A stretch of DNA of 34,006 nt from Kiritimatiellales bacterium (GTDB taxonomy: Bacteria > Verrucomicrobiota > Kiritimatiellia > Kiritimatiellales > Pontiellaceae): NCBI GenBank assembly GCA_021734345.1, contig JAIPJC010000022.1, forward strand, positions 1-34,006, read 5' to 3'. The notes beneath the pieces were generated by a model that ran no database searches, had not been told where the DNA came from, and saw only the letters and a list, made by a program, of their open reading frames with translations. The position numbers and the translations under genes are program-made. Position 1 is the stretch's first letter. Each line of letters starts with the position of its first letter. Below, one piece after another: positions 5,382-31,021 of this stretch.

Positions 5382-6560
5382 ATGGGAAAATGGGTTTGGT
5401 TTGCATGGGCGACGTCGATCGTATTCTGTAGCTATTCCGCCGATTGGCCAGTTTGGCGCGGTCCGGACGCCAATGGGATTTCGAGTGAAACCGGCTTGAA
5501 CCCAACAGGCGCGCACGTTCTTTGGACAAAGGAACTCGGCGTTGGGCATTCGACCGTATCCGTCAAGGATGGACGGCTCTACACGATGGGCAACATTGAA
5601 GACAAGGACGTGGTCTACTGTCTCGATGCCAAGACCGGCGAAAAGATCTGGGATCATTCATACGACTGCCCGGCCGGAAACTATCCGGGTCCGCGTGCGA
5701 CGCCTGTTTGCTCCGGGGATAGGGTCTACACCTTCAGTCGGGAGGGCCTGCTGATCTGCTTCGATGCGGTGTCTGGCGCCGTGGCATGGAAGACAGACGT
5801 CTTGGACAAGTCCGGCAATGAAAACATAAAGTGGGGTCTGGCATCCTCGCCTGTCATCGAGGGCGATCTCATCCTGCTCAATGTCGGCGAGTCCGGCGTT
5901 GCGGTTGACAGGAACAGCGGGAAAATAAAATGGAAGAGCGTCGGCAAGTCCAGCTACGCCACGCCGGTGGTGTTCGACCATAAGGGCAAGCGCTGCGCCG
6001 CCATCTTTTCCGCGCCGGGTCTACAGATCGTCGATGTAGCTACAGGCAAGAAGCTCGACTCTTTCAACTGGGAAACCAAGTACGATATCAATGGCGCCGA
6101 TCCGATTGTCATGGGCGACCGGATTTTCATCTCCTCTGGCTACGACCACGGCTGCGCCATGCTCGATTTTTCGTCCGGAAAATTGAAGAAGGTTTGGGAG
6201 AGCGATGTGCTCAACAACCAGTTCAGCAGCAGCATCCTCATTGATGGCTACTTGTACAGTGTTGATGGCCAAGCCAAGAAAAAAGGGCATTTGCGGTGCA
6301 TCTCCGCCGTGGACGGTGTCGAGCAGTGGAGCATGCCGATCGGGTTTGGCTCGCTGATCTCAGCCGACGGTAAGCTGATTGCCCTAGGCGAGGACGGAAC
6401 GCTCTACTTCGCCGAAGCCACGCCCAAGGCCTATAAGGAAATCTCGCAATTCAAGACCGGCCTGTCCCAGCTCTGTTGGACGCCGCCGGCGCTCGCAAAC
6501 GGCATCATCTATTGCCGCAACGACAAGGGGACGCTCGTCGCGATCGATGTCAGCAAATAA
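5382..6560 (+). CDS. PQQ-like (BamB-type) beta-propeller, exported
   Basis: The 392-residue protein has a signal peptide (MGKWVWFAWATSIVFCSYSA) and then DWPVWRGPDANGIS, the WPxxRGPxxNGI start that recurs in verrucomicrobial PQQ-like propeller proteins. Repeats such as YCLDAKTGEKIWDHS, CFDAVSGAVAWKTD and AVDRNSGKIKWKS are typical Ala/Asp-x-x-Thr-Gly-x-x-x-Trp blades. Such proteins are usually periplasmic scaffolds rather than true PQQ enzymes, and no PQQ biosynthesis gene is present here. The ATG at 5382 is preferred over an upstream TTG because it has a GGGAGG ribosome-binding site. It is the first gene of the operon and overlaps the next by 14 bp. Confidence 0.88.
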   Translation: MGKWVWFAWATSIVFCSYSADWPVWRGPDANGISSETGLNPTGAHVLWTKELGVGHSTVSVKDGRLYTMGNIEDKDVVYCLDAKTGEKIWDHSYDCPAGNYPGPRATPVCSGDRVYTFSREGLLICFDAVSGAVAWKTDVLDKSGNENIKWGLASSPVIEGDLILLNVGESGVAVDRNSGKIKWKSVGKSSYATPVVFDHKGKRCAAIFSAPGLQIVDVATGKKLDSFNWETKYDINGADPIVMGDRIFISSGYDHGCAMLDFSSGKLKKVWESDVLNNQFSSSILIDGYLYSVDGQAKKKGHLRCISAVDGVEQWSMPIGFGSLISADGKLIALGEDGTLYFAEATPKAYKEISQFKTGLSQLCWTPPALANGIIYCRNDKGTLVAIDVSK

Positions 6561-7242
6561 AACCATTCTAATCTGCCAATGCGCCGCGCGCGGCTTGGTC
6601 AATGTAGACGCGGCTTCCAGCCGCGTTGCGCCTGAAGAGTCCGTCGTCATCCCCGACCTCTGCCGCGCCGCCGCCGAAAAGGATCCAATCCTTGGAACTC
6701 GTTTTTCGGAAATCCACGCCTGCCATCCCCGCGCCGTCCGGGCTCTTTTTTCCTTTGCCGGGTTCCCGCTTCCTGAAGGCGCAAAACTGCATAACCACCG
6801 CCATCCGGTCGGCCCGCCAGCCGATAATCCATCCGTCCAATCCGACACCGCATGGTTTCCGGTCATCGACTACGACCGTTGCACCAGCTGCGGACAGTGC
6901 TTCCAGTTCTGCTTGTTCGGAGTCTATGAGAAGGACGAATCAGGCAGGGTGGTGGTGGCGAATCCGCAAAGTTGCAAAAACAACTGCCCGGCCTGCGCGC
7001 GGATCTGCCCCGAGGCCGCGATCATTTTTCCAAAGGTCGGCGAGTCGCCTATCAATGGAGCAGAGATTTCCGACGAAGACGGACTCAAGGCCAATATCAA
7101 GGTCAACGTCGACGAAATCCTTGGCGACGATGTCTATGCTGCACTCACCGCCCGTAGGCAGAAGCGCCGCGCATTGCTCAACGAGAAGAAAATCGGGAAG
7201 GCATTGGCAGAGCGGAAAAAGTATTTTGGGGAGAAGTCATGA
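6547..7242 (+). CDS. 2x[4Fe-4S] ferredoxin-like protein with extra N-terminal Cys domain
   Basis: The 231-residue cytoplasmic protein carries two [4Fe-4S] motifs: C112-x2-C115-x2-C118-x3-C122 and C143-x3-C147-x2-C150-x3-C154. The first 100 residues are not ferredoxin. They contain ILICQCA (C10, C12), PDLC (C39) and HACHPRAV (C59), a spacing that recalls the N-terminal parts of HdrA/MvhD-type redox proteins, though I cannot assign it firmly. Residues 20-28 (VDAASSRVA) are the translation of a family A palindromic repeat at 6603-6631. The C-terminus is basic and helical. It overlaps the genes on both sides and probably donates electrons to the radical SAM enzyme or to the redox complex encoded downstream. 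Confidence 0.8.
   Translation: MSANKTILICQCAARGLVNVDAASSRVAPEESVVIPDLCRAAAEKDPILGTRFSEIHACHPRAVRALFSFAGFPLPEGAKLHNHRHPVGPPADNPSVQSDTAWFPVIDYDRCTSCGQCFQFCLFGVYEKDESGRVVVANPQSCKNNCPACARICPEAAIIFPKVGESPINGAEISDEDGLKANIKVNVDEILGDDVYAALTARRQKRRALLNEKKIGKALAERKKYFGEKS
6603..6631. repeat. Family A palindromic repeat, in-frame
   Basis: The core TGTAGACGCGGCTTCCAGCC continues with GCGTTGCGC. GCGGCTTCCAGCCGC is a palindrome. It is translated as VDAASSRVA inside the ferredoxin-like gene. Confidence 0.85.
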
Positions 7243-8432
7243 GCACCACCCTGATGAAACGTCTATTGACGGAACCCGATAAGCGGTTGCTATGGAAGTT
7301 CGCCTACAACTTTGGCTACAAGGGCATGCGCTCCATCGAAAAGTTTCAGCAACGCATCAAGCGGGGCGAATATTTTCCGGCTTTCCTGTTCCTCTCCGTC
7401 ACCAACGCCTGCAACCTCGCCTGCCAAGGTTGCTGGGTGTCGCAGTCGAATCCGCCCAAGGAGATTTCCCCCGGCACGCTCGACAACGTCATCACCGAGT
7501 GCAAGGCGCAGGGTTCTTTCTTTTTCGGTATCCTCGGCGGCGAGCCGTTGCTCTACGACGGCCTCTTCGAGGTTTTTGAAAAGCATCCCGACTGCTACTT
7601 CCTGCTCTTCACCAACGGAACGATGATCACCGATGCCGTCGCCAAGGAGATGCGGCGCATCGGGAACATTAGCCCGCTCATCAGCATCGAGGGACTCGCA
7701 AAGGTCAGCGATGTGCGTCGCGGCGGGGAGAACGTCTATGAGCAGTCGATGATGGGGTTGGCCAACTGCCGCGCCAACCGTCTTGTGACCGGCGTGGCGA
7801 CCAGCATCTGCAAAACCAACATCGACGACCTCGCCTCGGAAAAATTCGTGAACGAAATCGCGGCGCTCGGCGCGCATTATCTTTGGTACTACATCTACCG
7901 TCCGGTTGGCCCGAAGCCCACGCCGAAGCTGGCCTTGAACTCCGAACAGATCACCGCGCTGCGGCGCTTCATGGTCGACATCCGCCTCAAGGCGCCGCTG
8001 ATGGTCATCGATGCCTACTGGGACGACAAGGGCCACGCGCTCTGTCCGGCGGCGGTCGGCATCGCCAATCACATCAGCCCCGACGGCTACATCGAACCTT
8101 GTCCGCCGCTCCAGTTCGCCAAGGACAACATTGGCGATGGCACGGGGCTCTACGACATCTTCAACCGCTCCGACTTCCTCGCCAAGTTCCGCATGATGAG
8201 TTGCGAAACCACGCAGGGCTGCATCATCATGGAACATCCTGGCAAGCTCGCGGACTTCATCAAGAACGAGGGGGCGGTCGACAGCTCCGGGCGAAGCTCC
8301 CTGCTGGCCGAACTCGATCACATGTGCGCCTGCGGGAGCCATCACCAGCCCGGCAAGGAAATTCCTGAACGCAGCTGGGCCTACCGCTTTGCCAAGAAAC
8401 ACTGGTTCTTCGGATTCGGAGCATACGGATAA
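7239..8432 (+). CDS. Radical SAM protein with C-terminal Cys cluster (SPASM-like)
   Basis: The 397-residue enzyme has the radical SAM motif C58-x3-C62-x2-C65 (CNLACQGC) and GGEP at residues 100-103 for SAM binding. The C-terminal third adds Cys-rich segments (LCPAAVG, EPCPPLQ, MMSCETTQGC, HMCACGS) consistent with auxiliary Fe-S clusters as in SPASM/twitch proteins. It cleaves SAM to a 5'-deoxyadenosyl radical; the substrate is unknown. Its position between a ferredoxin-like gene and a polyprenyl synthase fusion makes a lipid or terpenoid substrate, or a peptide, possible. The start overlaps the previous stop (ATGA), so it is translationally coupled. It is not an HpnH match that I can confirm. 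Confidence 0.9.
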   Translation: MSTTLMKRLLTEPDKRLLWKFAYNFGYKGMRSIEKFQQRIKRGEYFPAFLFLSVTNACNLACQGCWVSQSNPPKEISPGTLDNVITECKAQGSFFFGILGGEPLLYDGLFEVFEKHPDCYFLLFTNGTMITDAVAKEMRRIGNISPLISIEGLAKVSDVRRGGENVYEQSMMGLANCRANRLVTGVATSICKTNIDDLASEKFVNEIAALGAHYLWYYIYRPVGPKPTPKLALNSEQITALRRFMVDIRLKAPLMVIDAYWDDKGHALCPAAVGIANHISPDGYIEPCPPLQFAKDNIGDGTGLYDIFNRSDFLAKFRMMSCETTQGCIIMEHPGKLADFIKNEGAVDSSGRSSLLAELDHMCACGSHHQPGKEIPERSWAYRFAKKHWFFGFGAYG

Positions 8433-9955
8433 TGGAAAAAATAAAACAACCCTACGGCGTTCCGCCCGGAAAGGATCAGCGCGACGCACTGCAGCAAGCC
8501 GCTTGCGCCTATGTCGCACGGCACCAGCTCGTGCCGCCCCTCTCCATGGAGGAACTGCGGGATCACGCCTCGCGGATCACTCATCACTCAAGCCTCATCG
8601 ACTACGCCATGGTGCTGCTCAACAACGAGGTGTGGCGCGAAACCGTCGCCTCCATCCCCTACGAACGCCGCCTGCTACTGCTGCCGCAATGCCTGCGCGA
8701 CTTCAAGCATTGTCCGGCCGAGATCGACGAATTCGGCCTGCTGTGCGAGGAGTGCGGGCGTTGCAATATCGGCGAACTTCAGGCGCTCGCCGAGGAACTC
8801 GGCTATGTCGTGCTCGTCGCCGAAGGTTCCACCGTCGTCTCCAAACTGCTCGAAGGCGGGAAGGTCGACGCCGTCGTTGGTGTCAGTTGCCTGAATGCGC
8901 TCGAAAAATCATTTCCGCACATGGCCGCCGGAGCCATCCCCGGCCTGGCCATCCCGCTCACTATCGACGGTTGCATCGGCACCGAAATGGATCTTGGCCA
9001 TGTCCGCGACGCCATCCAGTTGAAATCGGATACCCCATGGGAAAACCAGCTCGATCTTGACCGCCTGCAGGAAATCGTGGACGGCTGGTTCGCGCCCTCC
9101 AGGGAATGGGAAACCGAAACCCGCACCGGGCAGATTGCCTACGAGTGGCTGCTCAAGGACGGCAAGCGCTGGCGCCCGTTCCTGCTGGCCTGCACCTATA
9201 GCGCGCTCAATGAAGGTTCCATCGATTTGCCCGATGAGATCCGCCGCCTTGCGATCGCCGTCGAATGTTTCCATAAGGCATCGCTTGCCCACGACGATAT
9301 CGAAGACGCCGACGACCTGCGCTACGGCGAACCCACGCTCCATCGTCAATATGGAATTCCCGTTGCGCTCAACGTGGGCGATCTGCTCGTGGGCGAAGGC
9401 TACCGCTGGATTGCATCCGTCGCCACCCGGACCGTCGAGCTGCTGCGTATCGCCGCCGAAAACCACCACACCCTTTGCTTGGGGCAGGGCGAAGAACTCT
9501 ACGGCCTCTCCCGGGAAACACCGTTCACCGCCAAGGAAGCCATCGAAATCTTCCGCCGCAAAACCGCGCCCGCCTTCGGCGTCTCGCTTTTGCTGGGAGC
9601 CGTTGCCGCCGGGGCGGACGATACCCTGCTGGCGACCCTCCAATCCTTCAGCGAATCGCTCGGCATTGCCTATCAGATCCGCGACGATATCGATGAATAC
9701 AAAACCGGCGAAGCTGTCGACCTGCGCGCGTCGCTTCTGCTGGCTCTCGCCAACGATCATAAACCGCTGGAATGGCTGCGGAGCGACAGCCCGAACCTCA
9801 GCCACATTTTTGACGAACTGATGGTGGTCGAAAAAGCCTCCCAGTTGTTGGAGCACTACAAGAACGAGGCCGTCCGCGCGCTCAATCCGCTTCAAAACGC
9901 CTTGCTGAAGAGCATGCTGCGGCGTGTCGCCACCAAAATGCTGGGAGGGATTTGA
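8432..9955 (+). CDS. DUF116-polyprenyl synthase fusion
   Basis: This 507-residue protein joins two domains. Residues about 60-200 match DUF116, with C87, C94, the CEECGRC block (C105, C108, C111), NIGELQALAEELGY, C153 and C181; the Cys pattern suggests a metal or Fe-S site. Residues about 225-500 are a class I trans-prenyltransferase, with KDGKRWRP, the first Asp-rich motif HDDIEDADD (D288-D295) and the second IRDDIDEY (D418-D421). The prenyl part should condense IPP with an allylic diphosphate to give a C15-C40+ chain. DUF116 genes often sit beside radical SAM genes, as here. The fusion suggests channeling or redox control of prenyl-chain synthesis. The start overlaps the previous stop by one base. 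Confidence 0.88.
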   Translation: MEKIKQPYGVPPGKDQRDALQQAACAYVARHQLVPPLSMEELRDHASRITHHSSLIDYAMVLLNNEVWRETVASIPYERRLLLLPQCLRDFKHCPAEIDEFGLLCEECGRCNIGELQALAEELGYVVLVAEGSTVVSKLLEGGKVDAVVGVSCLNALEKSFPHMAAGAIPGLAIPLTIDGCIGTEMDLGHVRDAIQLKSDTPWENQLDLDRLQEIVDGWFAPSREWETETRTGQIAYEWLLKDGKRWRPFLLACTYSALNEGSIDLPDEIRRLAIAVECFHKASLAHDDIEDADDLRYGEPTLHRQYGIPVALNVGDLLVGEGYRWIASVATRTVELLRIAAENHHTLCLGQGEELYGLSRETPFTAKEAIEIFRRKTAPAFGVSLLLGAVAAGADDTLLATLQSFSESLGIAYQIRDDIDEYKTGEAVDLRASLLLALANDHKPLEWLRSDSPNLSHIFDELMVVEKASQLLEHYKNEAVRALNPLQNALLKSMLRRVATKMLGGI

Positions 9956-9959
9956 TTCC

Positions 9960-10739
9960 GTGAAAACACTCGCTGGCCAGATGATCCGTATGGCTGCGCG
10001 TTCGCGCACCTTCCTGGAAAAAGACTCCCGCCGGGAGGTGGCCCGTTTCATTCGCGCACGGCAAAATCCCGATGGAGGTTTCCGGGGGCGGGGGGCGGCG
10101 AGCGATCTCTACTACACGGTCTTTGCTTCGTCCGGATTGATGGCGCTGGGCGCACCGTTTTCACTGTGGCGGCTATGGCGGTATGTGCGTTCGTTCGGCA
10201 TGGGCGACAACCTTGATCTGGTTCATCTGGCCTGTTTAATCCGGTTGCGCGTGGTGTTCCCGATGCGGAAATCGACACGCCGGAAGTTTGCCGAGGCATT
10301 GGCAGAACACCAGTCCGAATCCGCCTACGATCTATTCATGAAATTGTTGGCGGAGGATTATTTAGCCGAATCCAACTTTCCCGACGAACCGCTTTACATT
10401 CCGCCGGACGATCCCACTACGAATCTGGCCGCTGCGGTCGTGGTGAACCGGCAGATAGATCCTGTCACGGAGGACGCACTGTTTGAACGGATCTGTCCGT
10501 CCGGTGGTTTTGCCGCAACCGGGAACCTGCAATCCGCCGATTTGCTATCGACCGCGACGGCGCTTTTCGCCTTGCGGTCCATGGATGCCGATCTCGATTT
10601 CATCCGCCGGCCATGCCTGGACTATATCGCATCGCTCTGGCGGGATAGTGGTGGTTTTTCCGGACATGAAGCGGATCAGTTCGAGGACGTCGAATACACC
10701 TTCTACGCCCTGCTGGCCATCGGGTGCTTGATGGCATGA
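9960..10739 (+). CDS. Prenyltransferase/terpene-cyclase-like alpha-barrel protein
   Basis: The 259-residue product contains squalene-cyclase/prenyltransferase-type repeats: ARQNPDGGFRG near residue 30, SGGFAATGNLQSADLLSTATALFAL, and DSGGFSGHEADQFEDVEYTFYALLAIG at the end. Only about half of an alpha/alpha barrel is present, and I see no DxDD motif, so catalysis by itself is doubtful. It may be a partner or half-barrel of the following cyclase, or resemble the geranylgeranyltransferase beta fold. I chose the GTG at 9960, which follows GGGAGG at about 9944-9949 and starts 4 bp after the previous stop. An upstream ATG at 9924 would overlap the previous gene by 32 bp. Confidence 0.72.
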   Translation: MKTLAGQMIRMAARSRTFLEKDSRREVARFIRARQNPDGGFRGRGAASDLYYTVFASSGLMALGAPFSLWRLWRYVRSFGMGDNLDLVHLACLIRLRVVFPMRKSTRRKFAEALAEHQSESAYDLFMKLLAEDYLAESNFPDEPLYIPPDDPTTNLAAAVVVNRQIDPVTEDALFERICPSGGFAATGNLQSADLLSTATALFALRSMDADLDFIRRPCLDYIASLWRDSGGFSGHEADQFEDVEYTFYALLAIGCLMA

Positions 10740-12358
10740 ACGCCGCCTTGCAAAACGCCCGTGCAACCCTGCTGGCCGAACTTTCGCCCGCGGGGCGTTG
10801 GGAAGGAGAGCTTTCCAGTTCTGCCCTAGCTACGGCGGTGGCCGCGTTTGCATTGAAGCTGGCTGGCAAGGCCGAGCTGACGGCGCGCGGATGCCAATGG
10901 CTGGAAAACCATCGCAATGCCGACGGTGGTTGGGGCGACAGTCCCGAGAGTCCGAGCAACTTTACCACTACCTTGCTCTGCCGTTGCGCGTTGGATGAAG
11001 CGATCGGATCGCCGCAGGAAGTAGCTGATTCGATCCTCGGATTCTACGGCAACGACCGTACCTTTTCTGTTCCGATTTTGACCATGTGCATGCTGGCGGG
11101 GAAACTGGGCGACGACTGGTCGGTCGTGCCGCAACTCCCGTTCGAGCTGGCGGTGTTCCCTCACCGCTTCTACAAGTTTCTCCGGCTTCCCGTGGTGAGC
11201 TATGCCCTGCCCGCGTTGATCGCCATCGGGCTGGTGCGTCACAAAAACAAACCGTCCCGATTCTCATGCCTCCGGAATAGCTTGATGAACCGGGTGCTGG
11301 ATATCCTGCAGAAAATCCAACCCGACAGTGGTGGATATCTCGAGGCCGCACCATTGACCAGTTTTGTAGGCATGAGTCTGGTGGGCGCGGGCCTTGGCGA
11401 TCATCCGGTGGCGCAGGCGTGCTTCCGCTTTCTGGAAAACACGGTCCGCGACGATGGCAGCTGGCCGATCGACATCAATCTCTCGACGTGGGTGACGTCG
11501 CTTTCCGTCCGGGCCTTGGGTGACGATCTTTCCGGAGAACAAAAGGAGCGGATCCGCGACCATCTGCTCAAGACAAAGTGGACGGTGGAACATCCCTTTA
11601 CCCATGCCGTGCCGGGCGGCTGGGGCTGGACGTATGCGCAGGGCGGCGTGCCCGATGCGGACGACACCGCCGCCGCACTGCTGGCTTTGCGACGGCTTGG
11701 GCAGACAGGAATGTCTGCCCCGCATGTGGAGCAGACTTTCCAGTCTGCTCTGCGGGGAATCCGCTGGCTGTTGGATCTACAGAACCGCGACGGCGGCATG
11801 CCGACCTTTTGCAAGGGGTGGGGGAAGCTGCCGTTCGACCGCAGCTGTCCGGATCTGACCGCGCATGCGATCCGCGCCTTTATCGAGTGGCGCGGCGAGG
11901 TGGATGCCAACCTTTGGAAAAGGATGGAGCGTTCGATTCGTCGCGGCCTGCGTTATTTGGAAAAAGAACAACGTGCGGATGGCGTGTGGCTTCCGCTATG
12001 GTTTGGCAGCCAGTCCGACCCGACCCACGAAAACCCGGTGTACGGCACCGTCCGTGTACTGGAAGCCCTGCGCGAGCTGGACGAAGCCGAGTTTCCATCG
12101 GTTGTAAAAATGAAGCAACGTGGGTTCCATTGGCTGGAACGTGTTCCGCTTTCGGGGCTTTCGGTTGAGGAAACGGCCTTGGTGGCCGGCTCGACGGGCA
12201 GGGGGGCGGATCAACTACTCGAAATGACACAGGGTGGCACGGTGTTTTTGGCTAGCCCGATTGGGCTATATTTTGCGAGTCTGTGGTACTCCGAAAAACT
12301 ATACCCGCTGATTTTCACGGTGGAAGCATTGAAACGTTGCAAGGAAGAGCATGAGTAG
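10736..12358 (+). CDS. Squalene-hopene-cyclase-like class II terpene cyclase
   Basis: The 540-residue protein follows the SHC plan. The N-terminus (NARATLLAELSPAGRWEGEL) matches the LLxxQxxdGyWxgeLe start, several QW-like repeats follow (NADGGWGDS, RDDGSWPI, NRDGGMPTF, RADGVWLPLWFG), and the acid motif PDADD lies at residues 306-310, the DxDD that protonates the substrate. Bacterial SHCs are about 630-720 residues, so this one is short. No squalene synthase gene (hpnCDE or sqs) is in the window; the substrate may instead come from the polyprenyl synthase two genes upstream. Residues about 322-339 (GMSAPHVEQTFQSAL) are a translated family B repeat just after the DxDD helix. The start overlaps the previous stop (ATGA). 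Confidence 0.85.
   Translation: MNAALQNARATLLAELSPAGRWEGELSSSALATAVAAFALKLAGKAELTARGCQWLENHRNADGGWGDSPESPSNFTTTLLCRCALDEAIGSPQEVADSILGFYGNDRTFSVPILTMCMLAGKLGDDWSVVPQLPFELAVFPHRFYKFLRLPVVSYALPALIAIGLVRHKNKPSRFSCLRNSLMNRVLDILQKIQPDSGGYLEAAPLTSFVGMSLVGAGLGDHPVAQACFRFLENTVRDDGSWPIDINLSTWVTSLSVRALGDDLSGEQKERIRDHLLKTKWTVEHPFTHAVPGGWGWTYAQGGVPDADDTAAALLALRRLGQTGMSAPHVEQTFQSALRGIRWLLDLQNRDGGMPTFCKGWGKLPFDRSCPDLTAHAIRAFIEWRGEVDANLWKRMERSIRRGLRYLEKEQRADGVWLPLWFGSQSDPTHENPVYGTVRVLEALRELDEAEFPSVVKMKQRGFHWLERVPLSGLSVEETALVAGSTGRGADQLLEMTQGGTVFLASPIGLYFASLWYSEKLYPLIFTVEALKRCKEEHE
11700..11750. repeat. Family B palindromic repeat, in-frame
   Basis: GCAGACAGGAATGTCTGCCC is followed by CGCATGTGGA and GCAGACTTTCCAGTCTGC, two imperfect hairpins joined by a CATGTG linker. 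It is read in frame as MSAPHVEQTFQSAL. Confidence 0.85.
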
Positions 12359-12758
12359 TTTTATCAAAGGTATTTGCCATTTCGGGCTGTCGGTGTCCGA
12401 CCTCGACGAATCGGTGCGTTTCTATACCGAGGTGCTGGGGCTGGAAATCAGCGAGCGCCGCGAAAAGGATGTCTTCTTCCGTGTCGGCGCGGACGATGTG
12501 CTGGCGTTGATCCAGTATCCGGGCGGGGCGGAGCGGTTCGATGCCGAGATGCGGCCGAAGAATTGGGGCAAGGCCTTCACGCATTTTGGACTGGCCGCGG
12601 AATCGGCCGAGGCGGTATTTGAATTTCAGGAGCATCTGAACGCGAATGGCGTGAGGATCGTGAAGGAGGCGTACGAACGGTGGGACGGTGCGAGCCTTTA
12701 TTTTATCGATCCCAACGGCTACACGCTGGAGTACATCTATTTCAAACCGGGGAAATAA
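12351..12758 (+). CDS. VOC-family (glyoxalase-fold) metalloenzyme
   Basis: The 135-residue protein has the paired beta-alpha-beta-beta-beta units of the vicinal oxygen chelate fold: CHFGLSVSDLDESVRFYTEVLGLE at the start, THFGLAAESAEAVFEF in the middle and DPNGYTLEYIYF at the end. Candidate metal ligands are the two His of the HFGL motifs and the Glu of LEY. VOC enzymes range from lactoylglutathione lyases to dioxygenases and epimerases, so the reaction is not determined. It overlaps the terpene cyclase stop by 8 bp. That coupling suggests it acts on the terpenoid product or an intermediate. Confidence 0.85.
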   Translation: MSSFIKGICHFGLSVSDLDESVRFYTEVLGLEISERREKDVFFRVGADDVLALIQYPGGAERFDAEMRPKNWGKAFTHFGLAAESAEAVFEFQEHLNANGVRIVKEAYERWDGASLYFIDPNGYTLEYIYFKPGK

Positions 12759-12780
12759 CAACAACATAAGGTGGTGGGGA

Positions 12781-14133: not shown

Positions 14134-14135
14134 AT

Positions 14136-20393: not shown

Positions 20394-20404
20394 AATAAAA
20401 TCGG

Positions 20405-22750: not shown

Positions 22751-22775
22751 AAATTCTTGGCAGGATCAATTTGAT

Positions 22776-23231: not shown

Positions 23232-23252
23232 AAAAACAGCGGTGGAATGGTT

Positions 23253-24725: not shown

Positions 24726-25996
24726 AGGTTGTACACATCGTTCCAGGATCGGGCGGCACGTTCTACTGCCAGAACTGTATGCGCGACGGTGCTTTGGTGA
24801 CGGCATTGCGGCGGGCAGGCGTAGATGCGGTGATGGTGCCGATGTATCTGCCCATGTTTTCCGACGGCGAGCCGGTGCAGGCCGACGTACCGGTATTCTT
24901 CGGCGGCATCAATGTCTGGCTGCAACAGCAGTTTCCGTTTTTCCGCAAGACCCCGCGTTGGTTGGATCGCTTGTTCGATTCGCAATGGATGCTCAACCGG
25001 GTGGCCAAGCTGGAGGGGACGACGTCCCCTGTCGAACTTGGGCCGATGACGCTTTCAATGCTGGAGGGTTCCGAAGGGAATCAGCGCAAAGAGGTCGAGC
25101 GTTTGGTGGCATGGTTGGCGGAACATGAAAAACCGGACGTGGTGCATCTTTCGAATGCGTTGTTGATCGGCTTGGCTGGCGCGATCAAAGAGGCGCTGAA
25201 TGTCCCGGTGGTCTGTTCGCTTCAGGACGAAGATGGGTGGCTCGACGGGATTGCTTCGCCGTTCGGCGAGGCGTGTTGGGATGCGATCCGTGCGCGGGCG
25301 GGGGATGTGGATCGGTTCGTGGCGGTGAGCGCTTGGTTTGCTGATCGGATGAGCGAGCGCTTGATGATCCCGCGCGATCTGATCGACGTGGTGCATATCG
25401 GCATCGACCTTACGGGATACGATCCCGCGCCGTTCGCGGTTGATCCACCGGTGCTTGGATTTCTTTCCCGCATGAATCCGGTCTTGGGACTGGACAAGCT
25501 GGTGGATGCGTTTATCGCGCTTAAAAAAATCCAAGGATTGGAAAAGCTGAAACTGCGTGCGATGGGCGGGGCGGTTGGCGAGGATCGGGAATACGTATCC
25601 TCCCTGAAAAAAAAGCTGGCGAAGCTAGGGCTGGAAAGCGAGGCGGAGTTTATTGAGGATTTTGGCCGCGAGCATCGCTTGGCGTTTTTGAAGTCGCTGT
25701 CGGTCATGTGCGTACCGGTGGAGCAGGGCGAGGCGTTTGGCACCTACATTATCGAAGCCATGGCGGCGGGCGTTCCGGTGGTGCAGCCGCACGCGGGCGC
25801 ATTTCCGGAATTGATCGAGCAGACGGGTGGCGGGTTGCTCTACGATGATTTGGAGGAAACCTTGGAGGATTTGCTGACCAATCCCCGATTGGCCCGGCAG
25901 CTGGGACAAAACGGGCGCGAGTCGGTGCTGGAAATTTTTGGAATCGAATCGATGGCGCGGAACATGGTCTCTGTCTACGGGGATTTGGCAAAATGA
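24722..25996 (+). CDS. Glycosyltransferase family 4 (GT-B)
   Basis: The 424-residue protein is a GT-B fold enzyme. The N-terminal MKVVHIVPGSGGTFYCQN region and the C-terminal glycosyltransferase domain (about 235-410: LGFLSRMNPVLGLDKLVDAF, then EDFGREHRLAFLKSLSVMCVP) lead to EQGEAFGTYIIEAMAAGVPV with the ExxxxxxxE nucleotide-sugar motif and the HAGAFPELIE region. It transfers a sugar from an activated donor to an unknown acceptor. In this operon the acceptor may be the cyclised terpenoid or a membrane component. No signal peptide or TM helix is seen, so it is cytoplasmic or peripheral. ATGA overlaps couple it to both neighbours. Confidence 0.87.
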   Translation: MKVVHIVPGSGGTFYCQNCMRDGALVTALRRAGVDAVMVPMYLPMFSDGEPVQADVPVFFGGINVWLQQQFPFFRKTPRWLDRLFDSQWMLNRVAKLEGTTSPVELGPMTLSMLEGSEGNQRKEVERLVAWLAEHEKPDVVHLSNALLIGLAGAIKEALNVPVVCSLQDEDGWLDGIASPFGEACWDAIRARAGDVDRFVAVSAWFADRMSERLMIPRDLIDVVHIGIDLTGYDPAPFAVDPPVLGFLSRMNPVLGLDKLVDAFIALKKIQGLEKLKLRAMGGAVGEDREYVSSLKKKLAKLGLESEAEFIEDFGREHRLAFLKSLSVMCVPVEQGEAFGTYIIEAMAAGVPVVQPHAGAFPELIEQTGGGLLYDDLEETLEDLLTNPRLARQLGQNGRESVLEIFGIESMARNMVSVYGDLAK

Positions 25997-27108
25997 CCAG
26001 GGACAGAATAATTTTTTTACTGACGTGCCTGGCTGTTTCGGTTTTTGGCGAGTGGCCAACCTATCACGGTGCGGCGGATTTGCGTGGTGTGGCGGATGTG
26101 GCATTGCCGGAGCAACCGGCGTTGCTGTGGCGATATGATGCAGGCGGTGCGATCGGCCATGCGCCGGTGTCGGACGGAGAACATATTTTCTTTTCGGCGA
26201 AGAAGGGAAAGATCGTTGCCATCGACTTGGAAGGTTCCGAGGTCTGGAAAAAAAACCTGATGCGAACGAACGATGCCGGTGCGGAGATGCCCGTACAGTT
26301 CGAAGCGCCGCTGGCCTGCGGAGGCGGATTGGTTTTTGCGGGGACATTGCGCGGATCGGTCTATGCGCTGGATGCCAAAACGGGCGAGGAGAAATGGCGC
26401 TATGAGACGGGTGGAATCTTTGTCGGATCGCCGAATATGGTTTCAAACCTTGTGGTGGTGCTGGATCAGTCGGAGGGGGCATTGCACGGTGTGGATATCG
26501 AGACGGGGAAGCTGGCCTGGAAGACGGAGGGCGTTGAACGGTGCGACGGTTCGCCGGGGATTGGAGATGGGCGCGTTGTGTTTGGCAGCTGTGCGGCGGC
26601 GTTGCATGTCTATTCGGCGAGTGATGGAATGCATTTGAAAAACATCGAACTGGGCGGTGATGCGCAGGTGGCGGGCGGTGTCGCGGTGGATGGAAACCTT
26701 GTTTTTGCCGGTGTGCGCGATGGCAGCATGGTTTGCGCCGATGCAGCAACCGGAGAGATGATTTGGAGCAGCGACGAGTCGACGGAGCAGACGTTCTCAA
26801 CTCCTGCGGTAACACCGAACGCAGTGGTTTATTCCTCAGACAATGGGTTTGTTTATGCGGTGGATCGCGAAGTCGGGAAGCTGCTTTGGAAATTCGATGC
26901 GGGTGGCTTGCCAGGGTCACCCGTGATTGCGAAGGACAAGGTGGTTATTTCGTCGGACGGTACGCTTTATTTGCTGGATCTAAAGGATGGAAAAAAACTG
27001 TGGGCGAAGGAGATCAGTGACGAGATTACGTCTCCGGCGATCATCAACGGGATGATTGTTGTCGGCGCGGACGATGGAACGGTGCGTGCGTTCGGCTCTA
27101 AAAAGTAG
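25993..27108 (+). CDS. PQQ-like beta-propeller, exported (last of five)
   Basis: The 371-residue protein has a signal peptide (MTRDRIIFLLTCLAVSVFG) and EWPTYHGAADLRGVA as its start motif. Blades are regular: ALDAKTGEEKWRYETG, GVDIETGKLAWKTEG, ADAATGEMIWSSDE, AVDREVGKLLWKFDAGG and LLDLKDGKKLWAKE. It resembles BamB more closely than the other propellers, with seven or eight short blades and no large inserts. Its stop TAG at 27106-27108 is part of the family A repeat that follows. It sits between the glycosyltransferase and the ABC transporter genes, and overlaps the former (ATGA). Confidence 0.88.
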   Translation: MTRDRIIFLLTCLAVSVFGEWPTYHGAADLRGVADVALPEQPALLWRYDAGGAIGHAPVSDGEHIFFSAKKGKIVAIDLEGSEVWKKNLMRTNDAGAEMPVQFEAPLACGGGLVFAGTLRGSVYALDAKTGEEKWRYETGGIFVGSPNMVSNLVVVLDQSEGALHGVDIETGKLAWKTEGVERCDGSPGIGDGRVVFGSCAAALHVYSASDGMHLKNIELGGDAQVAGGVAVDGNLVFAGVRDGSMVCADAATGEMIWSSDESTEQTFSTPAVTPNAVVYSSDNGFVYAVDREVGKLLWKFDAGGLPGSPVIAKDKVVISSDGTLYLLDLKDGKKLWAKEISDEITSPAIINGMIVVGADDGTVRAFGSKK

Positions 27109-27184
27109 ACGCGTTTTCCAGCCGCGTTGGGGGGGAACTGCTATTGGCTTTGGCGTGCGCAAGGCGGCTGGAAGCCGCGTCTAC
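27105..27184. repeat. Family A inverted pair, supplies stop codon
   Basis: GTAGACGCGTTTTCCAGCCG and, inverted, GGCTGGAAGCCGCGTCTAC enclose a 40-bp middle with a G7 run. The TAG of the first arm ends the upstream propeller; the second arm ends about 17 bp before the ABC ATPase start. Confidence 0.85.
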
Positions 27185-27200
27185 AATATGGGGAATGTTT

Positions 27201-27860
27201 ATGGAACATCTGCTGAAACTGGAAAAGATATCCAAGCGATACGACGCGTGCACCCATGTTTTGGCGTGCGTAGATTTGGCGGTGGCCGAAGGCGAATCGG
27301 TTGCCGTGGTCGGGCCATCGGGCTGCGGCAAGAGCACGTTGCTGAATATTATCGGAACGCTGGATCGACCGGATGCAGGATCGGTGGAATTTGACGGAAC
27401 CGATCTGTTGGCGATGGATGAAAAGGCGACGGCCGAGTTCCGGAACGCGCGCGTCGGTTTCGTGTTTCAGCTGCACCATCTCCTTCCGCAATGCTCGGTT
27501 TTGGAAAATGTGCTGGTGCCGTCGCTGGTAAACAGGAATGCCGGCAATGCGAAAGAGCGGGCGTTGCAGTTGCTTGATCGTGTTGGATTGTCGGATCGGT
27601 TGTCGCATCGGCCGGGTAAACTGTCGGGCGGGGAGCGGCAACGCGTGGCGGTGGTGCGGGCGCTGATCAACCGGCCGCGATTGCTGTTGGCGGACGAGCC
27701 GACCGGGTCGCTGGATCGCGCGGGCGCGGATGAACTGGTGCGACTTTTGTTGGAACTCAACCGCGAAGAAAGCCTGACGCTGGTCATGGTGACGCATTCG
27801 ATGCGGTTGGCGGAAAAGATGGATCGGGTGATGACACTCGAAGCCGGAACATTGAAATGA
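27201..27860 (+). CDS. ABC transporter ATPase (LolD/MacB-type)
   Basis: The 219-residue ATPase has Walker A GPSGCGKST, Q-loop FVFQLHHLLPQCSVLENV, signature LSGGERQ, Walker B LLLADEPTGSLD and the H-loop VTHS. The length and LLPQxSVxENV segment are typical of LolD/FtsE/MacB-class ATPases paired with FtsX permeases, as encoded directly downstream with an ATGA overlap. These systems extract lipoproteins or act as mechanotransducers rather than pump small solutes. I prefer the ATG at 27201 (MEHLLKLEK) with GGGGA upstream; an earlier ATG at 27195 adds two residues, and longer starts would read into the repeat. Confidence 0.9.
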   Translation: MEHLLKLEKISKRYDACTHVLACVDLAVAEGESVAVVGPSGCGKSTLLNIIGTLDRPDAGSVEFDGTDLLAMDEKATAEFRNARVGFVFQLHHLLPQCSVLENVLVPSLVNRNAGNAKERALQLLDRVGLSDRLSHRPGKLSGGERQRVAVVRALINRPRLLLADEPTGSLDRAGADELVRLLLELNREESLTLVMVTHSMRLAEKMDRVMTLEAGTLK

Positions 27861-30800
27861 TCCGATTGGTTTCCAGGAGTCTGCGGTTTTATGGACGGAG
27901 CCATGTGGGCGTACTGCTCGGCACGGTGTTGGCATCGGCCATATTGACCGGGTCGTTGCTGGTTGGCGACTCGGTGGATGGCTCGCTCCGGAAGTTTGCC
28001 CTGCAACGCCTCGGCGGAATCCATTATGCAATGCAGGTGTCGAACGGGTTGGTTTCGAGTGAGCTTGCCGTAAAAATTTCCGATGATGCGGCGGTGGTTT
28101 TGCAATTGCGCGGCATGGCGCTGGCCAACGAAAAACAGATCAACCGCGTGCAGGTGCTGGGTACGGATGGCCGATTCTGGAAGTTTGCAGGGCTGGATTT
28201 CCAGTTGCGGGGAAACGAAGTGGCGTTGAACGAAAAACTGGCGGTGGCTTTGGGTGTCGATGTTGGAAGCGAGGTTTCGCTTCGGATTGAAAAGCCATCG
28301 CTGCTGCCGCGCGATGCCCCGTTGGCAGCGCAAAAGGATGACCGCAGTGTTCGCGGTCGGTTTACGGTCACACGCATTCTGGGGGATGACGAGCTGGGGC
28401 GCTTCGGTTTGTCGGCCAGCCAGACTGTGCCGTACAATGCGTTCGTTAACTCAAAGTGGCTGGAAGAACGCACGGGTTTGGACGGCAAGGCGAATTTGAT
28501 TTTGACGGGCGAGGAGCTTCCCGATTCATCCCTTGAAAACGTGTGGGAGTGCTCAGACTTCGGGTTGAGGTTCCGTACGGTGAATGGCGTGGTGCAGCTG
28601 GAGTCGGAGGGGATTTACCTGCCGCCGGAAGCGGTGCGGGCGGCCATGTCGATTCCGGGGGCGGAGGGGACGCTGACCTATCTGGTGAATTCGATTTCCA
28701 AGGGTGGGAAGTCGACGCCATATTCGTTTGTGCTGGCGAGCGGCGGGGCAGGCGGGCCGCCTGCGGTACAGCTTGGCGACCATGAAATAATCATCAACCG
28801 GTGGCTGGCGGACGAGCTGGGCGCGGTGGTTGGCGACTCCGTTTCGATGAAGTATTTCGAACTGCTTCCTGCGAACCGCTTCGAGGAACGGGAGCGGACT
28901 TTCACGGTTCTCCGTGTGGTTGAAATGGACGATTTGGAATTAGAGCGGAAGCTTGCGCCGCAGTTCCCGGGGCTGACGGACGTGGACCGTTGCGCGGATT
29001 GGGATGTCGGGATTCCGATGGAGAAGGCGCGGTTGGATGATGCAGCGAACGAGGCCTACTGGAACCAATACAAACAGATGCCAAAGGCCATCGTTTCGCT
29101 GAAGGCCGGACAGGAAATGTGGTCGAACCGGTTCGGAGGTTTGACGTCCGTTCGGTGGTTGAATGGCAACGATGTCGAGACGGCTTTCCGGCAGGAATAT
29201 AATCCTGCGGCGGCCGGATTTGTTTTCCAGCCGGTGCGCGAACAGGCGCTGGCGGCGGTGGATCATGCGATGGACTTTGGCCAGCTATTCATCGGTATGA
29301 GCTTTTTCCTGATTGTGGCGGCGCTGATGCTGACGGGCCTGTTATTTGTGTTCGGCGTTCAACGGCGCGCGGAGGAGATGGGGATTCTGCTGGCGACGGG
29401 CTGGACACCGGGCCGGGTACGTACGCTCTTTTTTGCGGAGGGAGGGATGATTGCTCTCGTTGGTTCGGTGGTCGGTGCATGGCTGGGGACGGGATACACG
29501 AAGCTGTTGATTCTCGGGTTGTCCAACTATTGGAAAGGGGCGGTGGCCCATTCGGCGATCCAGTATTTTGCGAAGCCGGAGACCCTCGCGACGGGTGCAA
29601 TTTCGAGTTTCGCTTGCGCGCTGGTAGCGATGGGCGTTGCGATGTGGCGGCAGACCAGGCATCCGGCGCGCGAATTATTGATGGCGGATTTTACACAGGA
29701 GTTCCTCCCGCTGGAAAAAGATTCACCGGGGCAGGTGGGCCGCCTGCGGTACGTCGCCGGAGGTGCGGCTCTTGGCGCGATTGGGTTGGTGGCCTATGCG
29801 CTGATGGCGGAAGTGCAGAGTGTGACCATGCCGTTTTTCGGGGCGGGGGCATTGTTGCTGGTTGCGGGGGTGCTGTTTTGCGGGATCGCTTTGCGGCGGG
29901 TGGGCAGACTGGAAAGTCTGCCCCACATAAAAGGCATGGCTTTGCGGAATGTGGCGCGGCGGCGCGGGCGCAGCCTGACGGTGGCCGGTCTGCTGGCGTG
30001 CGGGTGCTTTCTGGTGTTTGCGGTTTCTTCAATGAAGGAGGATGTGGCGGCGCATGCGGATGAGCCGGGATCGGGCACGGGTGGATTCGCTTGGTTCGGG
30101 GAGTCGACGCTACCGATTGCCGATGATTTGGGCGGTGTCCGGTTGCGGGTACATGACGGGGACGACGCGAGCTGCCTTAATCTGAACCGCGCCCGGTCGC
30201 CCAAGTTATTGGGAGTGGATCCGGATGCGATGTCGAGGCGGAAGGCGTTTCTGGCTGGCGAGGATGTATGGGCGCTGCTGAAACTCGATTTACTGGATGG
30301 CGTTATCCCGGCTCTGGTGGGTGATTTGGATACGGCGATGTGGGGGCTGGAGGCAAAGGTTGGCCCGGAAAAAGGCGATGTGTTGGATTATCGTGACGAA
30401 GCCGGAAATGCGTTCAAGGTAAAGCTGGTCGGTGCGCTGCCGATGCGGCTGTCGGTTTTCCAGGGAAGTTTGCTGATGGCCGAAGAGCGGTTTGTGCAAC
30501 GGTTTCCGGGCGAGGCGGGCTATCGGATGTTCCTGCTCGACGGGGCAGGCGGGACGCCTGCGGTACGGCAGTACGAACGGGCCGGTTTGGATGTGGTGCC
30601 GACGACGGAACGGTTGATGGAGTTCTACGCGGTGGAGTCGACCTATCTGGCGATGTTTCTAGTGCTGGGAGCGATGGGTTTGGCCGTCGGCAGCATGGGC
30701 ATGGGCGTAGTGGTGCTGCGCAATGTGCAGGATCGGAAAACAGAGGTTGCCTTGATGCGGGCGGTGGGATATCGGCGCGCCGTTTTGTGGAAGCTGCTCG

Positions 30801-31021
30801 TTGCCGAACATGGGATGTTGCTAGTGGCCGGGTTGGCTGTGGGGATGATGGCTTCGGCAGTGGCGATGGTTCCGGCCATGGTGATTTCGCAGTCGCAGGT
30901 GTCGTACGGTTTTCTGGCGGGATTGCTTGGGATGGTTGTGCTGTGCGGGATCGTGTGCATGGCGGGCGCGATTGGTATCTCGCTTAGAGGGGATGCGCTG
31001 GCCGGCTTGCGAAATGAATAA
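27857..31021 (+). CDS. FtsX-like ABC permease (large, two FtsX domains)
   Basis: The 1054-residue protein has about ten transmembrane helices: one near the start (VGVLLGTVLASAILTGSLLV), groups around residues 475-595, 630-740, and 930-1045. This is the two-FtsX-domain layout with large periplasmic loops of the LolCE/MacB-related, MetI-unlike permeases. Four in-frame repeats are seen: family D at about residues 296 (GGAGGPPAVQLG), 624 (PGQVGRLRYV) and 895 (GAGGTPAVRQ), and a half family B at 682 (GRLESLPHIKG), all in loops. With the upstream ATPase it forms a complete transporter; the substrate may be a lipoprotein or a lipid made by the operon. It ends 4 bp before the convergent ferredoxin. 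Confidence 0.87.
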   Translation: MIRLVSRSLRFYGRSHVGVLLGTVLASAILTGSLLVGDSVDGSLRKFALQRLGGIHYAMQVSNGLVSSELAVKISDDAAVVLQLRGMALANEKQINRVQVLGTDGRFWKFAGLDFQLRGNEVALNEKLAVALGVDVGSEVSLRIEKPSLLPRDAPLAAQKDDRSVRGRFTVTRILGDDELGRFGLSASQTVPYNAFVNSKWLEERTGLDGKANLILTGEELPDSSLENVWECSDFGLRFRTVNGVVQLESEGIYLPPEAVRAAMSIPGAEGTLTYLVNSISKGGKSTPYSFVLASGGAGGPPAVQLGDHEIIINRWLADELGAVVGDSVSMKYFELLPANRFEERERTFTVLRVVEMDDLELERKLAPQFPGLTDVDRCADWDVGIPMEKARLDDAANEAYWNQYKQMPKAIVSLKAGQEMWSNRFGGLTSVRWLNGNDVETAFRQEYNPAAAGFVFQPVREQALAAVDHAMDFGQLFIGMSFFLIVAALMLTGLLFVFGVQRRAEEMGILLATGWTPGRVRTLFFAEGGMIALVGSVVGAWLGTGYTKLLILGLSNYWKGAVAHSAIQYFAKPETLATGAISSFACALVAMGVAMWRQTRHPARELLMADFTQEFLPLEKDSPGQVGRLRYVAGGAALGAIGLVAYALMAEVQSVTMPFFGAGALLLVAGVLFCGIALRRVGRLESLPHIKGMALRNVARRRGRSLTVAGLLACGCFLVFAVSSMKEDVAAHADEPGSGTGGFAWFGESTLPIADDLGGVRLRVHDGDDASCLNLNRARSPKLLGVDPDAMSRRKAFLAGEDVWALLKLDLLDGVIPALVGDLDTAMWGLEAKVGPEKGDVLDYRDEAGNAFKVKLVGALPMRLSVFQGSLLMAEERFVQRFPGEAGYRMFLLDGAGGTPAVRQYERAGLDVVPTTERLMEFYAVESTYLAMFLVLGAMGLAVGSMGMGVVVLRNVQDRKTEVALMRAVGYRRAVLWKLLVAEHGMLLVAGLAVGMMASAVAMVPAMVISQSQVSYGFLAGLLGMVVLCGIVCMAGAIGISLRGDALAGLRNE
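28744..28772. repeat. Family D repeat, in-frame
   Basis: GGGGCAGGCGGGCCGCCTGC, then GGTACAGC: palindromic GGCAGGCGGNCCGCCTGCGGTAC-type unit. Read as GAGGPPAVQ. Sister copies are at 29728 and 30542 in the same gene. Confidence 0.8.
29728..29755. repeat. Family D repeat, in-frame (second copy)
   Basis: GGGGCAGGTGGGCCGCCTGC, then GGTACGTC. Read as GQVGRLRYV, a different frame from the first copy. Confidence 0.78.
29902..29929. repeat. Half family B repeat, in-frame
   Basis: GGCAGACTGGAAAGTCTGCC followed by CCACATA: one hairpin of the family B element, read as GRLESLPHI. Confidence 0.75.
30542..30569. repeat. Family D repeat, in-frame (third copy)
   Basis: GGGGCAGGCGGGACGCCTGC, then GGTACGGC. 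Read as GAGGTPAVR, the same frame as the first copy. Confidence 0.8.

What the first reader, a model, noticed from the sequence alone, without database searches (positions are those of the whole stretch)
5382..31021. Candidate undescribed module: terpenoid synthesis plus NAD(P)H-to-periplasm electron chain plus propeller scaffolds
Seen: about 20 co-directional genes with ATGA/GTGA-type coupling. They comprise an upstream prenyl synthase fused to DUF116, class II cyclase-like proteins, a radical SAM enzyme, a VOC protein, NuoEF-like and GltD-like proteins, a NosR/NapH-like polyferredoxin, a Tat polyferredoxin, five PQQ-like and one NHL-like propellers, a GT4, and an FtsX-type ABC system. Inference: a cyclised (and perhaps glycosylated) terpenoid made in the cytoplasm could serve as a membrane carrier or structural lipid for a chain NAD(P)H to NuoEF/GltD, to ferredoxin, to the NosR-like protein, to the Tat ferredoxin and propellers. 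I know of no named system with this gene set.
Basis: partly seen in the sequence, partly recalled or inferred. Interest (0 to 1): 0.85.

Follow-up and report, generated by a model that had tools for sequence, protein, structure and literature searches.

The report
Conserved terpenoid and electron-export gene block
A set of 19 neighbouring bacterial genes, found again in many related and some distant bacteria, appears to make an unusual ring-shaped lipid and to carry electrons from inside the cell across its membrane; the parts belong to known families, but our searches found no paper that describes the combination.

Summary
The block is real. Nineteen co-directional genes (5382-31021) form three sub-modules. 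T is ferredoxin, radical SAM, DUF116-prenyl synthase, toroid protein, class II cyclase. E is propeller, NHL, Tat ferredoxin, NosR/NapH-like protein, propeller, NuoE-F fusion, GltD-like protein. X is GT4, propeller, ABC, FtsX. A Planctomycetota genome keeps 13 of the genes in window order.

NuoEF carries all five ligands of the bifurcating Bfu core. The GltD-like subunit has lost its presumed NADPH domain, so NAD(P)H becomes NADH plus ferredoxin. The cyclase keeps DxDD, but 23 of 26 T-positive genomes searched lack squalene synthase, so a hopanoid pathway is unlikely. The membrane-carrier idea is weak: probable Pontiella relatives make menaquinone, and T and E each occur alone.

Likely role: a Bfu enzyme feeding a periplasmic ferredoxin, coupled to an undescribed cyclic terpenoid lipid. 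The T-E chemical link is inferred. In Planctomycetota the association is weak (7 of 16 E-positive).

The parts
5382..6560 (+). PQQ1: PQQ-like (BamB-type) propeller, probable signal peptide (by eye)
   Evidence: Pfam PQQ_2 2.7e-31; beside the T genes in relatives
6547..7242 (+). Fd1: soluble ferredoxin with two 4Fe-4S motifs (module T)
   Evidence: Fer4_10 2.5e-08; cysteines conserved in 41 rows
7239..8432 (+). rSAM: radical SAM protein with CxxxCxxC and further conserved cysteines (module T)
   Evidence: Radical_SAM 2.6e-15; conserved Cys; below the curated cut-offs of HpnH, NirJ and AhbD
8432..9955 (+). DUF116 + polyprenyl synthase fusion (module T)
   Evidence: PF01976 2.2e-36 and PF00348 5.8e-40; FARM DDIED in 105 of 106 rows, seven DUF116 cysteines in 106 of 106 (101 distinct relatives plus the window); model pTM 0.85
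9924..10739 (+). PTtor: single alpha-alpha toroid protein with a DLLSTAT-type motif, no DxDD (module T); start uncertain
   Evidence: Prenyltrans 9.7e-11; motif count; D.DD absent in the window protein, present somewhere in 3 of 70 relatives
10724..12358 (+). SHC-like class II terpene cyclase, catalytic DADDT at residues 311-315 (module T)
   Evidence: SQHop_cyclase_C 5.4e-26; DxDD in 58 of 58 rows
12351..12758 (+). VOC (glyoxalase-fold) protein; not part of the widely conserved core
   Evidence: Glyoxalase 7.5e-17; seen only in same-family relatives, in none of 80 loci
12781..14106 (+). PQQ2: PQQ-like propeller
   Evidence: PQQ_2 3.9e-23
14136..15572 (+). PQQ3: membrane-anchored PQQ-like propeller (module E)
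   Evidence: PQQ_2 1.5e-21; N-terminal hydrophobic helix 8-26
15569..16522 (+). NHL: membrane-anchored NHL-like propeller with a conserved GCCNP motif (module E)
   Evidence: NHL 1.2e-06; GCCNP in 39 of 39 relatives; helix 8-26
16740..17297 (+). TatFd: twin-arginine ferredoxin, 17 cysteines, about four 4Fe-4S clusters (module E)
   Evidence: Fer4 3e-10; Cys conserved in 41 rows; RR near the N-terminus in 37 of 40 relatives
17294..18616 (+). NosR/NapH-like membrane polyferredoxin, seven predicted helices (module E)
   Evidence: Fer4_5 1.3e-12; NosR and NapH hits far below cut-off; hydropathy
18621..20327 (+). PQQ4: propeller with N-terminal membrane helices (module E)
   Evidence: PQQ_2 2.6e-34; hydropathy
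20405..22750 (+). NuoEF: fused BfuC-BfuB-like subunit (NuoE, 2Fe-2S, FMN/NADH domain, SLBB, 2x 4Fe-4S) (module E)
   Evidence: PF01257, PF01512, PF10589; best PDB matches NfnB, StnB-type and HydB chains; B2 ligands C624, C662, H711, C716, C721
23247..24725 (+). GltD: BfuA-like subunit, Fer2 + GltD FAD part + C-terminal Fe-S, presumed NADPH domain absent (module E); start uncertain
   Evidence: Fer2_4 2.9e-09, Fer4_20 3.9e-14; alignment to 9bov_A leaves chain residues 285-472 unmatched; short in 25 of 25 rows
24722..25996 (+). GT4 glycosyltransferase (module X)
   Evidence: Glycos_transf_1 2.1e-20
25993..27108 (+). PQQ5: PQQ-like propeller (module X)
   Evidence: PQQ_2 1.1e-50
27195..27860 (+). 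ABC ATPase of LolD/MacB type (module X)
   Evidence: ABC_tran 2.8e-35; the type is my reading from its FtsX partner
27857..31021 (+). FtsX-type double permease, about ten hydrophobic helices (module X)
   Evidence: FtsX 3.9e-18, two stretches; hydropathy; 54 of 288 phylum genomes
31531..33572 (+). Histidine kinase and LuxR-type response regulator, possible regulators; both beside the block in G001, a regulator piece in G005
   Evidence: HisKA_3, Response_reg, GerE

Best explanation
The block encodes one functional system of three parts. (1) Module T makes a squalene-independent cyclic terpenoid in the cytoplasm: the DUF116-prenyl synthase builds a head-to-tail polyprenyl diphosphate, the DxDD class II cyclase with its small toroid partner cyclises it, and the ferredoxin and radical SAM enzyme modify it. 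(2) Module E is a membrane-linked Bfu-type enzyme: NADH and reduced ferredoxin are confurcated on the fused NuoE-NuoF core, electrons run through the Fe-S wires of the shortened GltD-like subunit to the NosR/NapH-like membrane polyferredoxin, and on to the Tat-exported ferredoxin and the membrane-anchored propellers. This would supply low-potential electrons outside the cytoplasmic membrane. (3) Module X (GT4, propeller, FtsX-type ABC) glycosylates and/or moves the lipid. The most likely link is that E drives a reductive step on the terpenoid lipid, or on a protein carrying it, at the periplasmic face. Shown: conservation, linkage, domain make-up, retained catalytic ligands. Inferred: direction of flow, product, periplasmic substrate, role of X.
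For: T and E markers co-occur: both in 49 genomes, of 59 T-positive and 55 E-positive among 288 of the phylum (Fisher p 2e-38, treating related genomes as independent), in 23 families; 19 of the 49 have both within 8 kb, in 8 families. X (FtsX) is in 44 of 59 T-positive and 42 of 55 E-positive genomes, and in only 4 genomes with neither. Contiguous T+E+X or T+E occurs in several families and in Planctomycetota (L233 and L234; L137 with L179). Bfu ligands: C624, C662, H711, C716, C721 align with C438, C476, H525, C531, C536 of NiFe-Bfu (residues from PMC9304861 section 6); H711 in 37 of 37 covering rows, C662 is Thr in 6 of 37. The stretch that holds the NADPH part in relatives is short in 25 of 25 GltD rows. 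In one compact relative the A subunit is reduced to Fe-S parts fused to NuoEF, and in L215 it shows no FAD-domain hit. 17 conserved cysteines in TatFd, RR in 37 of 40. No CxxCH in the window's block proteins. DxDD in 58 of 58 cyclase rows; no SQS_PSY in 23 of 26 T-positive genomes searched.
Against: T and E are separable: 10 T-positive genomes lack E and 6 E-positive lack T, and a profile search did not find the fusion in those 6. Of 50 T-positive genomes elsewhere only 21 have a NosR match, one of them a short piece, and Chthoniobacter flavus (G072) has none. In 195 Planctomycetota genomes T is in 43, E in 16, both in 7 (p 0.037), and 8 of the 9 other E-positive genomes lack the fusion even by profile. 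In G001 and G016 the E genes lie on another contig than T and X. Three of 26 T-positive genomes do have a squalene-synthase-family gene, one of them the probable P. desulfatans. I recognised no acceptor enzyme for the periplasm in the block. The DUF116 model had no PDB match below E 0.03. Polar-lipid work on Pontiella reported common lipid classes (passages), though it did not target neutral terpenoids.
Confidence: 0.42

Rival explanations
1. Module E is an electron outlet (extracellular or periplasmic electron transfer) for fermenting anaerobes, and T only supplies a structural lipid for the same envelope.
For: Electrons leave the cytoplasm by gene content.
Against: The same paper says Kiritimatiella glycovorans reduces AQDS and metals too, and I could not show that it has the block; it also says the Pontiella strains have menaquinones and c-type cytochromes that could serve. 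The identification of G005 and G021 as Pontiella rests on size alone. No c-type haem motif is in the window's block proteins. It does not explain the tie to T.
Confidence: 0.22
2. T and E are independent modules that co-occur because the same anaerobic lifestyle favours both.
For: T without E and E without T exist; weak association in Planctomycetota.
Against: Physical linkage within 8 kb in 19 of 49 double-positive genomes over 8 families, with several gene orders, and the same order of 13 genes in another phylum.
Confidence: 0.16
3. One reading: the cyclised terpenoid is itself the membrane electron carrier of the chain.
For: Both halves are in one block; NosR/NapH relatives work with quinols (recalled).
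Against: The probable Pontiella relatives make MK-7 and MK-9. E occurs without T in 6 of 55 genomes. I recognised no gene for a redox-active head group in the block.
Confidence: 0.08
4. E substitutes for Rnf or Nqr as the NADH-ferredoxin energy coupling site.
For: Both link NADH, ferredoxin and the membrane (for E; recalled for Rnf and Nqr).
Against: PF03116 (Rnf/Nqr membrane subunits) is in 26 of 33 E-positive and 23 of 34 E-negative genomes tested, including the window's own genome (E status).
Confidence: 0.04

Closest known systems
Bfu family of electron-bifurcating enzymes (HydABC, Nfn-Bfu/StnABC, NiFe-HydABCSL; PMC9304861)
   Same: NuoE-NuoF core with SLBB, NADH_4Fe-4S and C-terminal 2x 4Fe-4S domains, all five B2-cluster ligands, and a BfuA-like Fe-S subunit
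   Different: The BfuA-like protein shows no hydrogenase or pterin domain and lacks the presumed NADPH part; its genomic partners are a NosR/NapH-like membrane protein, a Tat ferredoxin and propellers, so the third partner is probably periplasmic. The passages read name Mbh-Bfu and Nuo-Bfu as predicted membrane-bound members
NapGH / NosR membrane and periplasmic ferredoxin relays
   Same: Fer4_5-type membrane polyferredoxin next to a Tat-exported ferredoxin
   Different: Scores far below the curated cut-offs for NapH and NosR; electrons appear to come from NADH/ferredoxin rather than quinol; no Nap or Nos reductase in the block
Squalene-hopene cyclase and hopanoid pathway
   Same: Class II cyclase fold family and DxDD motif
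   Different: Below the hopene-cyclase cut-off (74 against 431 bits); no squalene synthase family match in the own genome, which is 84.8% complete; a prenyl synthase is in the operon
DUF116-polyprenyl synthase fusion noted for Pirellula staleyi Psta_0175 (PMC5898192, passages)
   Same: Same domain fusion; those authors suggested a role in electron transfer for the DUF116 family
   Different: The passages seen describe no conserved gene set around the fusion

Membership tests
Bfu electron-bifurcating family | BfuB domains IPR011538, IPR019554, IPR019575, IPR017896 | tested here: met
   PF01512, PF10531 (SLBB, 21.6 bits, below its cut-off of 27), PF10589 and Fer4 in one protein; that these Pfam models correspond to the InterPro numbers named is recalled
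Bfu electron-bifurcating family | BfuC NuoE-type 2Fe-2S subunit | tested here: met
   PF01257 at residues 11-152, fused to BfuB
Bfu electron-bifurcating family | Five B2-cluster ligands, with a His absent in non-bifurcating homologues | tested here: met
   C624, C662, H711, C716, C721; H711 37 of 37 covering rows
Bfu electron-bifurcating family | BfuA with 2Fe-2S ferredoxin and 4Fe-4S domains | tested here: met
   Fer2_4 and Fer4-type hits
Bfu electron-bifurcating family | Coupled use of NAD(H) and ferredoxin | not testable with these tools
   needs the purified enzyme
Nfn-Bfu (NADPH type) | NADPH-binding domain in BfuA | tested here: not met
   13 query residues where 9bov_A has 188; 15-58 residues across the site in 25 rows; that the missing stretch is the NADPH domain is recalled from GltD-type enzymes
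Squalene-hopene cyclase | DxDD acid motif and toroid domains | tested here: met
Squalene-hopene cyclase | Squalene as substrate, made in the same cell | tested here: not met
   no PF00494 match in the own genome (84.8% complete) and in 23 of 26 T-positive genomes; 3 of 26 have one
Squalene-hopene cyclase | Curated hopene-cyclase score | tested here: not met
   TIGR01507 74.4 against 431.1 bits
HpnH adenosyl-hopene transferase | Curated score | tested here: not met
   TIGR03470 36.2 against 225.05 bits
NosR / NapH | Curated family scores | tested here: not met
   NosR 41.2 against 1000, NapH 38.6 against 213 bits
Polyprenyl diphosphate synthase | Asp-rich motifs and fold | tested here: met
   PF00348 above cut-off; FARM 105 of 106; the 50 structure matches shown are prenyl synthases

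The most novel reading that the evidence does not exclude
A widespread system of the Planctomycetes-Verrucomicrobia-Kiritimatiellota group in which an electron-confurcating Bfu enzyme feeds a dedicated low-potential ferredoxin pool outside the cytoplasmic membrane, and this pool drives reductive chemistry on an exported, squalene-independent cyclic terpenoid lipid not yet described.
Probability: 0.28. Interest if true: 0.92.

Novelty: new variant of a known kind. Interest (0 to 1): 0.74.

Why it matters
Bfu enzymes with unassigned partners are an open question: PMC9304861 speaks of 17 BfuB clades whose function is not obvious (passage). This block offers a concrete candidate whose partner would be periplasmic, a place where low-potential ferredoxin chemistry is little known (recalled). 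It also points to a cyclic terpenoid pathway spread over several phyla that mostly lacks the squalene step, so hopanoid and sterol searches would miss it. The unexplained reduction of AQDS and metals by Pontiella would become testable too.

Tried and rejected
Hopanoid or sterol pathway: judged unlikely, since squalene synthase family members are absent in 23 of 26 T-positive genomes searched. Rnf/Nqr substitute: rejected by coexistence. NADPH as donor: judged unlikely from the missing stretch. HpnH, NosR and NapH membership: below cut-offs. Haem relay through the propellers: no CxxCH in the window's block proteins. DUF116 fold: Foldseek found nothing below E 0.03, so inconclusive; the structure search of the full fusion showed only prenyl synthases among the 50 rows listed. 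G053 as Kiritimatiella glycovorans: rejected, because a 20 kb stretch has 45% GC against the 63.3% reported. Defence library on five upstream proteins: Fic and Vsr matches only, unrelated to the block. RNA families at gathering threshold and tRNAs: none in the window. Promoter and terminator scan of 5000-24900: 5 promoter-like sites against 7.8 in shuffles, 35 terminator-like against 24.4, not informative. Literature; two searches were too loose to help. Of the 24 papers listed for DUF116 I read passages of one only, PMC5898192; the other titles looked unrelated.

Method limits: Fisher values treat related genomes as independent. Markers were cut at E 1e-60 (fusion), 1e-45 (NosR) and 1e-40 (FtsX), so diverged copies can be missed: one search lists 13 genomes with T and E but no FtsX match, yet L213 from one of them shows an ABC gene beside the block. 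Family rows come from loci I had fetched and include a few duplicates (105 fusion rows, 101 distinct). Three of the 80 loci are the same contigs as G009, G017 and G039. A first Planctomycetota Fisher test counted G376 by profile; the strict count is the one used. Gene order in relatives rests on tblastn or longest-ORF calls, which let antisense ORFs mask some genes.


Full report
What is there. The window is one whole contig (G000:C22) of a 3.25 Mb, 84.8% complete genome. The closest named relatives are Kiritimatiellales and Pontiellaceae metagenome genomes. From 5382 to 31021 there are 19 + strand genes: PQQ1, Fd1, rSAM, DUF116-PPS, PTtor, SHC-like, VOC, PQQ2, PQQ3, NHL, TatFd, NosR/NapH-like, PQQ4, NuoEF, GltD-like, GT4, PQQ5, ABC, FtsX. 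Four larger gaps (before NuoEF, TatFd, GltD and ABC) hold copies of dispersed repeats.

Is it conserved? Among 58 genomes (the own and 57 relatives), 17 have the DUF116-PPS fusion (one split over two contigs), 19 a NosR-like match at E below 1e-60, and 16 both (p 2e-10). The whole set is contiguous in G021, G005 and the other-family genome G030. G030 has the window order without VOC; in G021 and G005 the fusion gene has moved to just after PQQ2. In G001 and G016 the T and X genes are together but E lies on another contig. Among 288 genomes of the phylum: fusion 59, NosR 55, both 49, spanning 23 families; FtsX 54. Of the 49, 19 have fusion and NosR 2.4-7.7 kb apart, in 8 families. Contiguous T+E blocks recur in several families, some of them compact (L205-L211, L213, L214; in L212 the two halves are divergent).

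Beyond the phylum. A scan of named genomes returned 80 loci of the fusion at 45-78% identity, titled Kiritimatiellales, Lentisphaeria, Verrucomicrobia, Planctomycetota, Acidobacteria, Hydrogenedentota and one Bacteroidales metagenome genome, among others. Beside it, in the DNA held, were rSAM in 58 of 80, PTtor in 57, Fd1 in 54 and SHC in 36; many loci are cut by contig ends. Among 30 NosR loci, TatFd was present in 28, PQQ4 in 28, NuoEF in 27, NHL in 25, PQQ3 in 22 and GltD in 22. In Planctomycetota, G391 keeps PQQ1-Fd1-rSAM-PPS-PTtor-SHC-PQQ3-NHL-TatFd-NosR-PQQ4-NuoEF-GltD, the window order without VOC and PQQ2, at 34-64% identity. G102 holds T (rSAM not seen), E and X in another order.

Limits of the association. 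In 195 Planctomycetota genomes the fusion is in 43, NosR in 16, both in 7 (p 0.037); of the other 9, only G376 has the fusion by profile. Of 50 T-positive genomes from the named scan, 21 have a NosR match at E 1e-15 or better. So T is the wider module, and E is not strictly dependent on T. X is also partly separate: FtsX is in 8 of the 10 T-only and 6 of the 6 E-only genomes of the phylum sample.

Module E. NuoEF combines NuoE, a 2Fe-2S domain, the FMN/NADH domain, SLBB and a two-cluster tail. Its best solved relatives are NfnB, two Stn-type chains, NiFe-HydB and HydB (the Stn label is recalled). The paper that defines the Bfu family (abstract, outline, passages and section 6 part 1 seen) names five ligands of a special cluster, with a His that non-bifurcating homologues lack. 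All five are present here (C624, C662, H711, C716, C721); the His is in 37 of 37 covering rows, and C662 is Thr in 6 of 37, a change the paper also reports. The GltD-like subunit matches BfuA chains but skips chain residues 285-472, where the NADPH part should lie (recalled from GltD-type enzymes); 25 of 25 rows are short there. In L206, a compact relative, NuoEF carries a C-terminal NuoG-like Fe-S piece and no GltD hit, and in L215 the separate subunit shows no FAD-domain hit. This fits a subunit that acts as a wire and not as an NADPH site. NosR/NapH-like has seven predicted helices and conserved cysteine sets, TatFd a twin arginine and 17 cysteines, and PQQ3, NHL and PQQ4 have N-terminal hydrophobic helices. 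NHL has GCCNP in 39 of 39 relatives, role unknown. Direction of flow is inferred.

Module T. The first Asp-rich motif is DDIED in 105 of 106 rows, and seven DUF116 cysteines are in 106 of 106. Ala and Ser at positions -5 and -4 of that motif suggest a longer chain (rule recalled, not tested). The cyclase has DxDD in 58 of 58 rows; the window's small toroid protein has none. Squalene synthase family members are absent in 37 of 40 genomes searched, and in 23 of 26 T-positive ones. The substrate is thus most likely a head-to-tail polyprenyl compound. In other lineages a CobW-type GTPase (26 of 77 loci) and a GcvH-like protein (16 of 77) precede Fd1.

What it does. I favour a Bfu-type supply of low-potential electrons to the outer face of the membrane, used on or with the terpenoid lipid that T makes and X glycosylates or moves. 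The chemical link between T and E is inferred from linkage alone. The probable Pontiella relatives make menaquinone, and their reported polar lipids are common classes (passages), which speaks against the terpenoid as the main electron carrier. E coexists with Rnf/Nqr.

Novelty. Parts belong to known families. The fusion was noted before (PMC5898192, passages). No paper in the library searched was found to describe the gene set; that library lacks most subscription papers and holds no bioRxiv preprints.

Noticed in passing
window 11693-11757, 19122-19186, 24294-24358, 29889-29928: A palindromic repeat family sits in frame inside four conserved genes (SHC, PQQ4, GltD, FtsX); in SHC the translated insert is present in the window, G009 and G001 but missing in G021, G030, G005 and G016. 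It resembles the in-frame palindromic elements known from Rickettsia (recalled).
   Followed up: partly
window 6597-6631, 14096-14130, 16645-16731, 27098-27187: A second palindromic repeat family, once inside the Fd1 gene and otherwise mainly at gene junctions, including an inverted pair between NHL and TatFd.
   Followed up: partly
window 28741-28772, 29724-29755, 30538-30569: A third short repeat occurs three times in FtsX; the relative G021 has it expanded in frame near the last site.
   Followed up: no
window 2398-2751: Tandem repeat with a 126-base unit beside the Vsr gene.
   Followed up: no
window 654-1772 and 1782-2291: Fic protein with DUF4172 and a Vsr mismatch endonuclease upstream of the block.
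   Followed up: no
L098 5589-6782, L122 4772-5272, L212 4388-5985: A CobW-type GTPase and a GcvH-like protein precede module T in 26 and 16 of 77 loci clustered; neither was among the window genes scanned.
   Followed up: partly
L084 222-1823: A second radical SAM protein precedes the fusion in 7 of 77 loci clustered.
   Followed up: no
G229:C7:167134-167574 and G337:C17:34433-35002: Two E-positive genomes without the fusion have a separate DUF116-like stretch.
   Followed up: no
window 31531-33572: Histidine kinase and LuxR-type regulator downstream, both beside the block in G001 and a regulator piece in G005; possible regulator pair.
   Followed up: no
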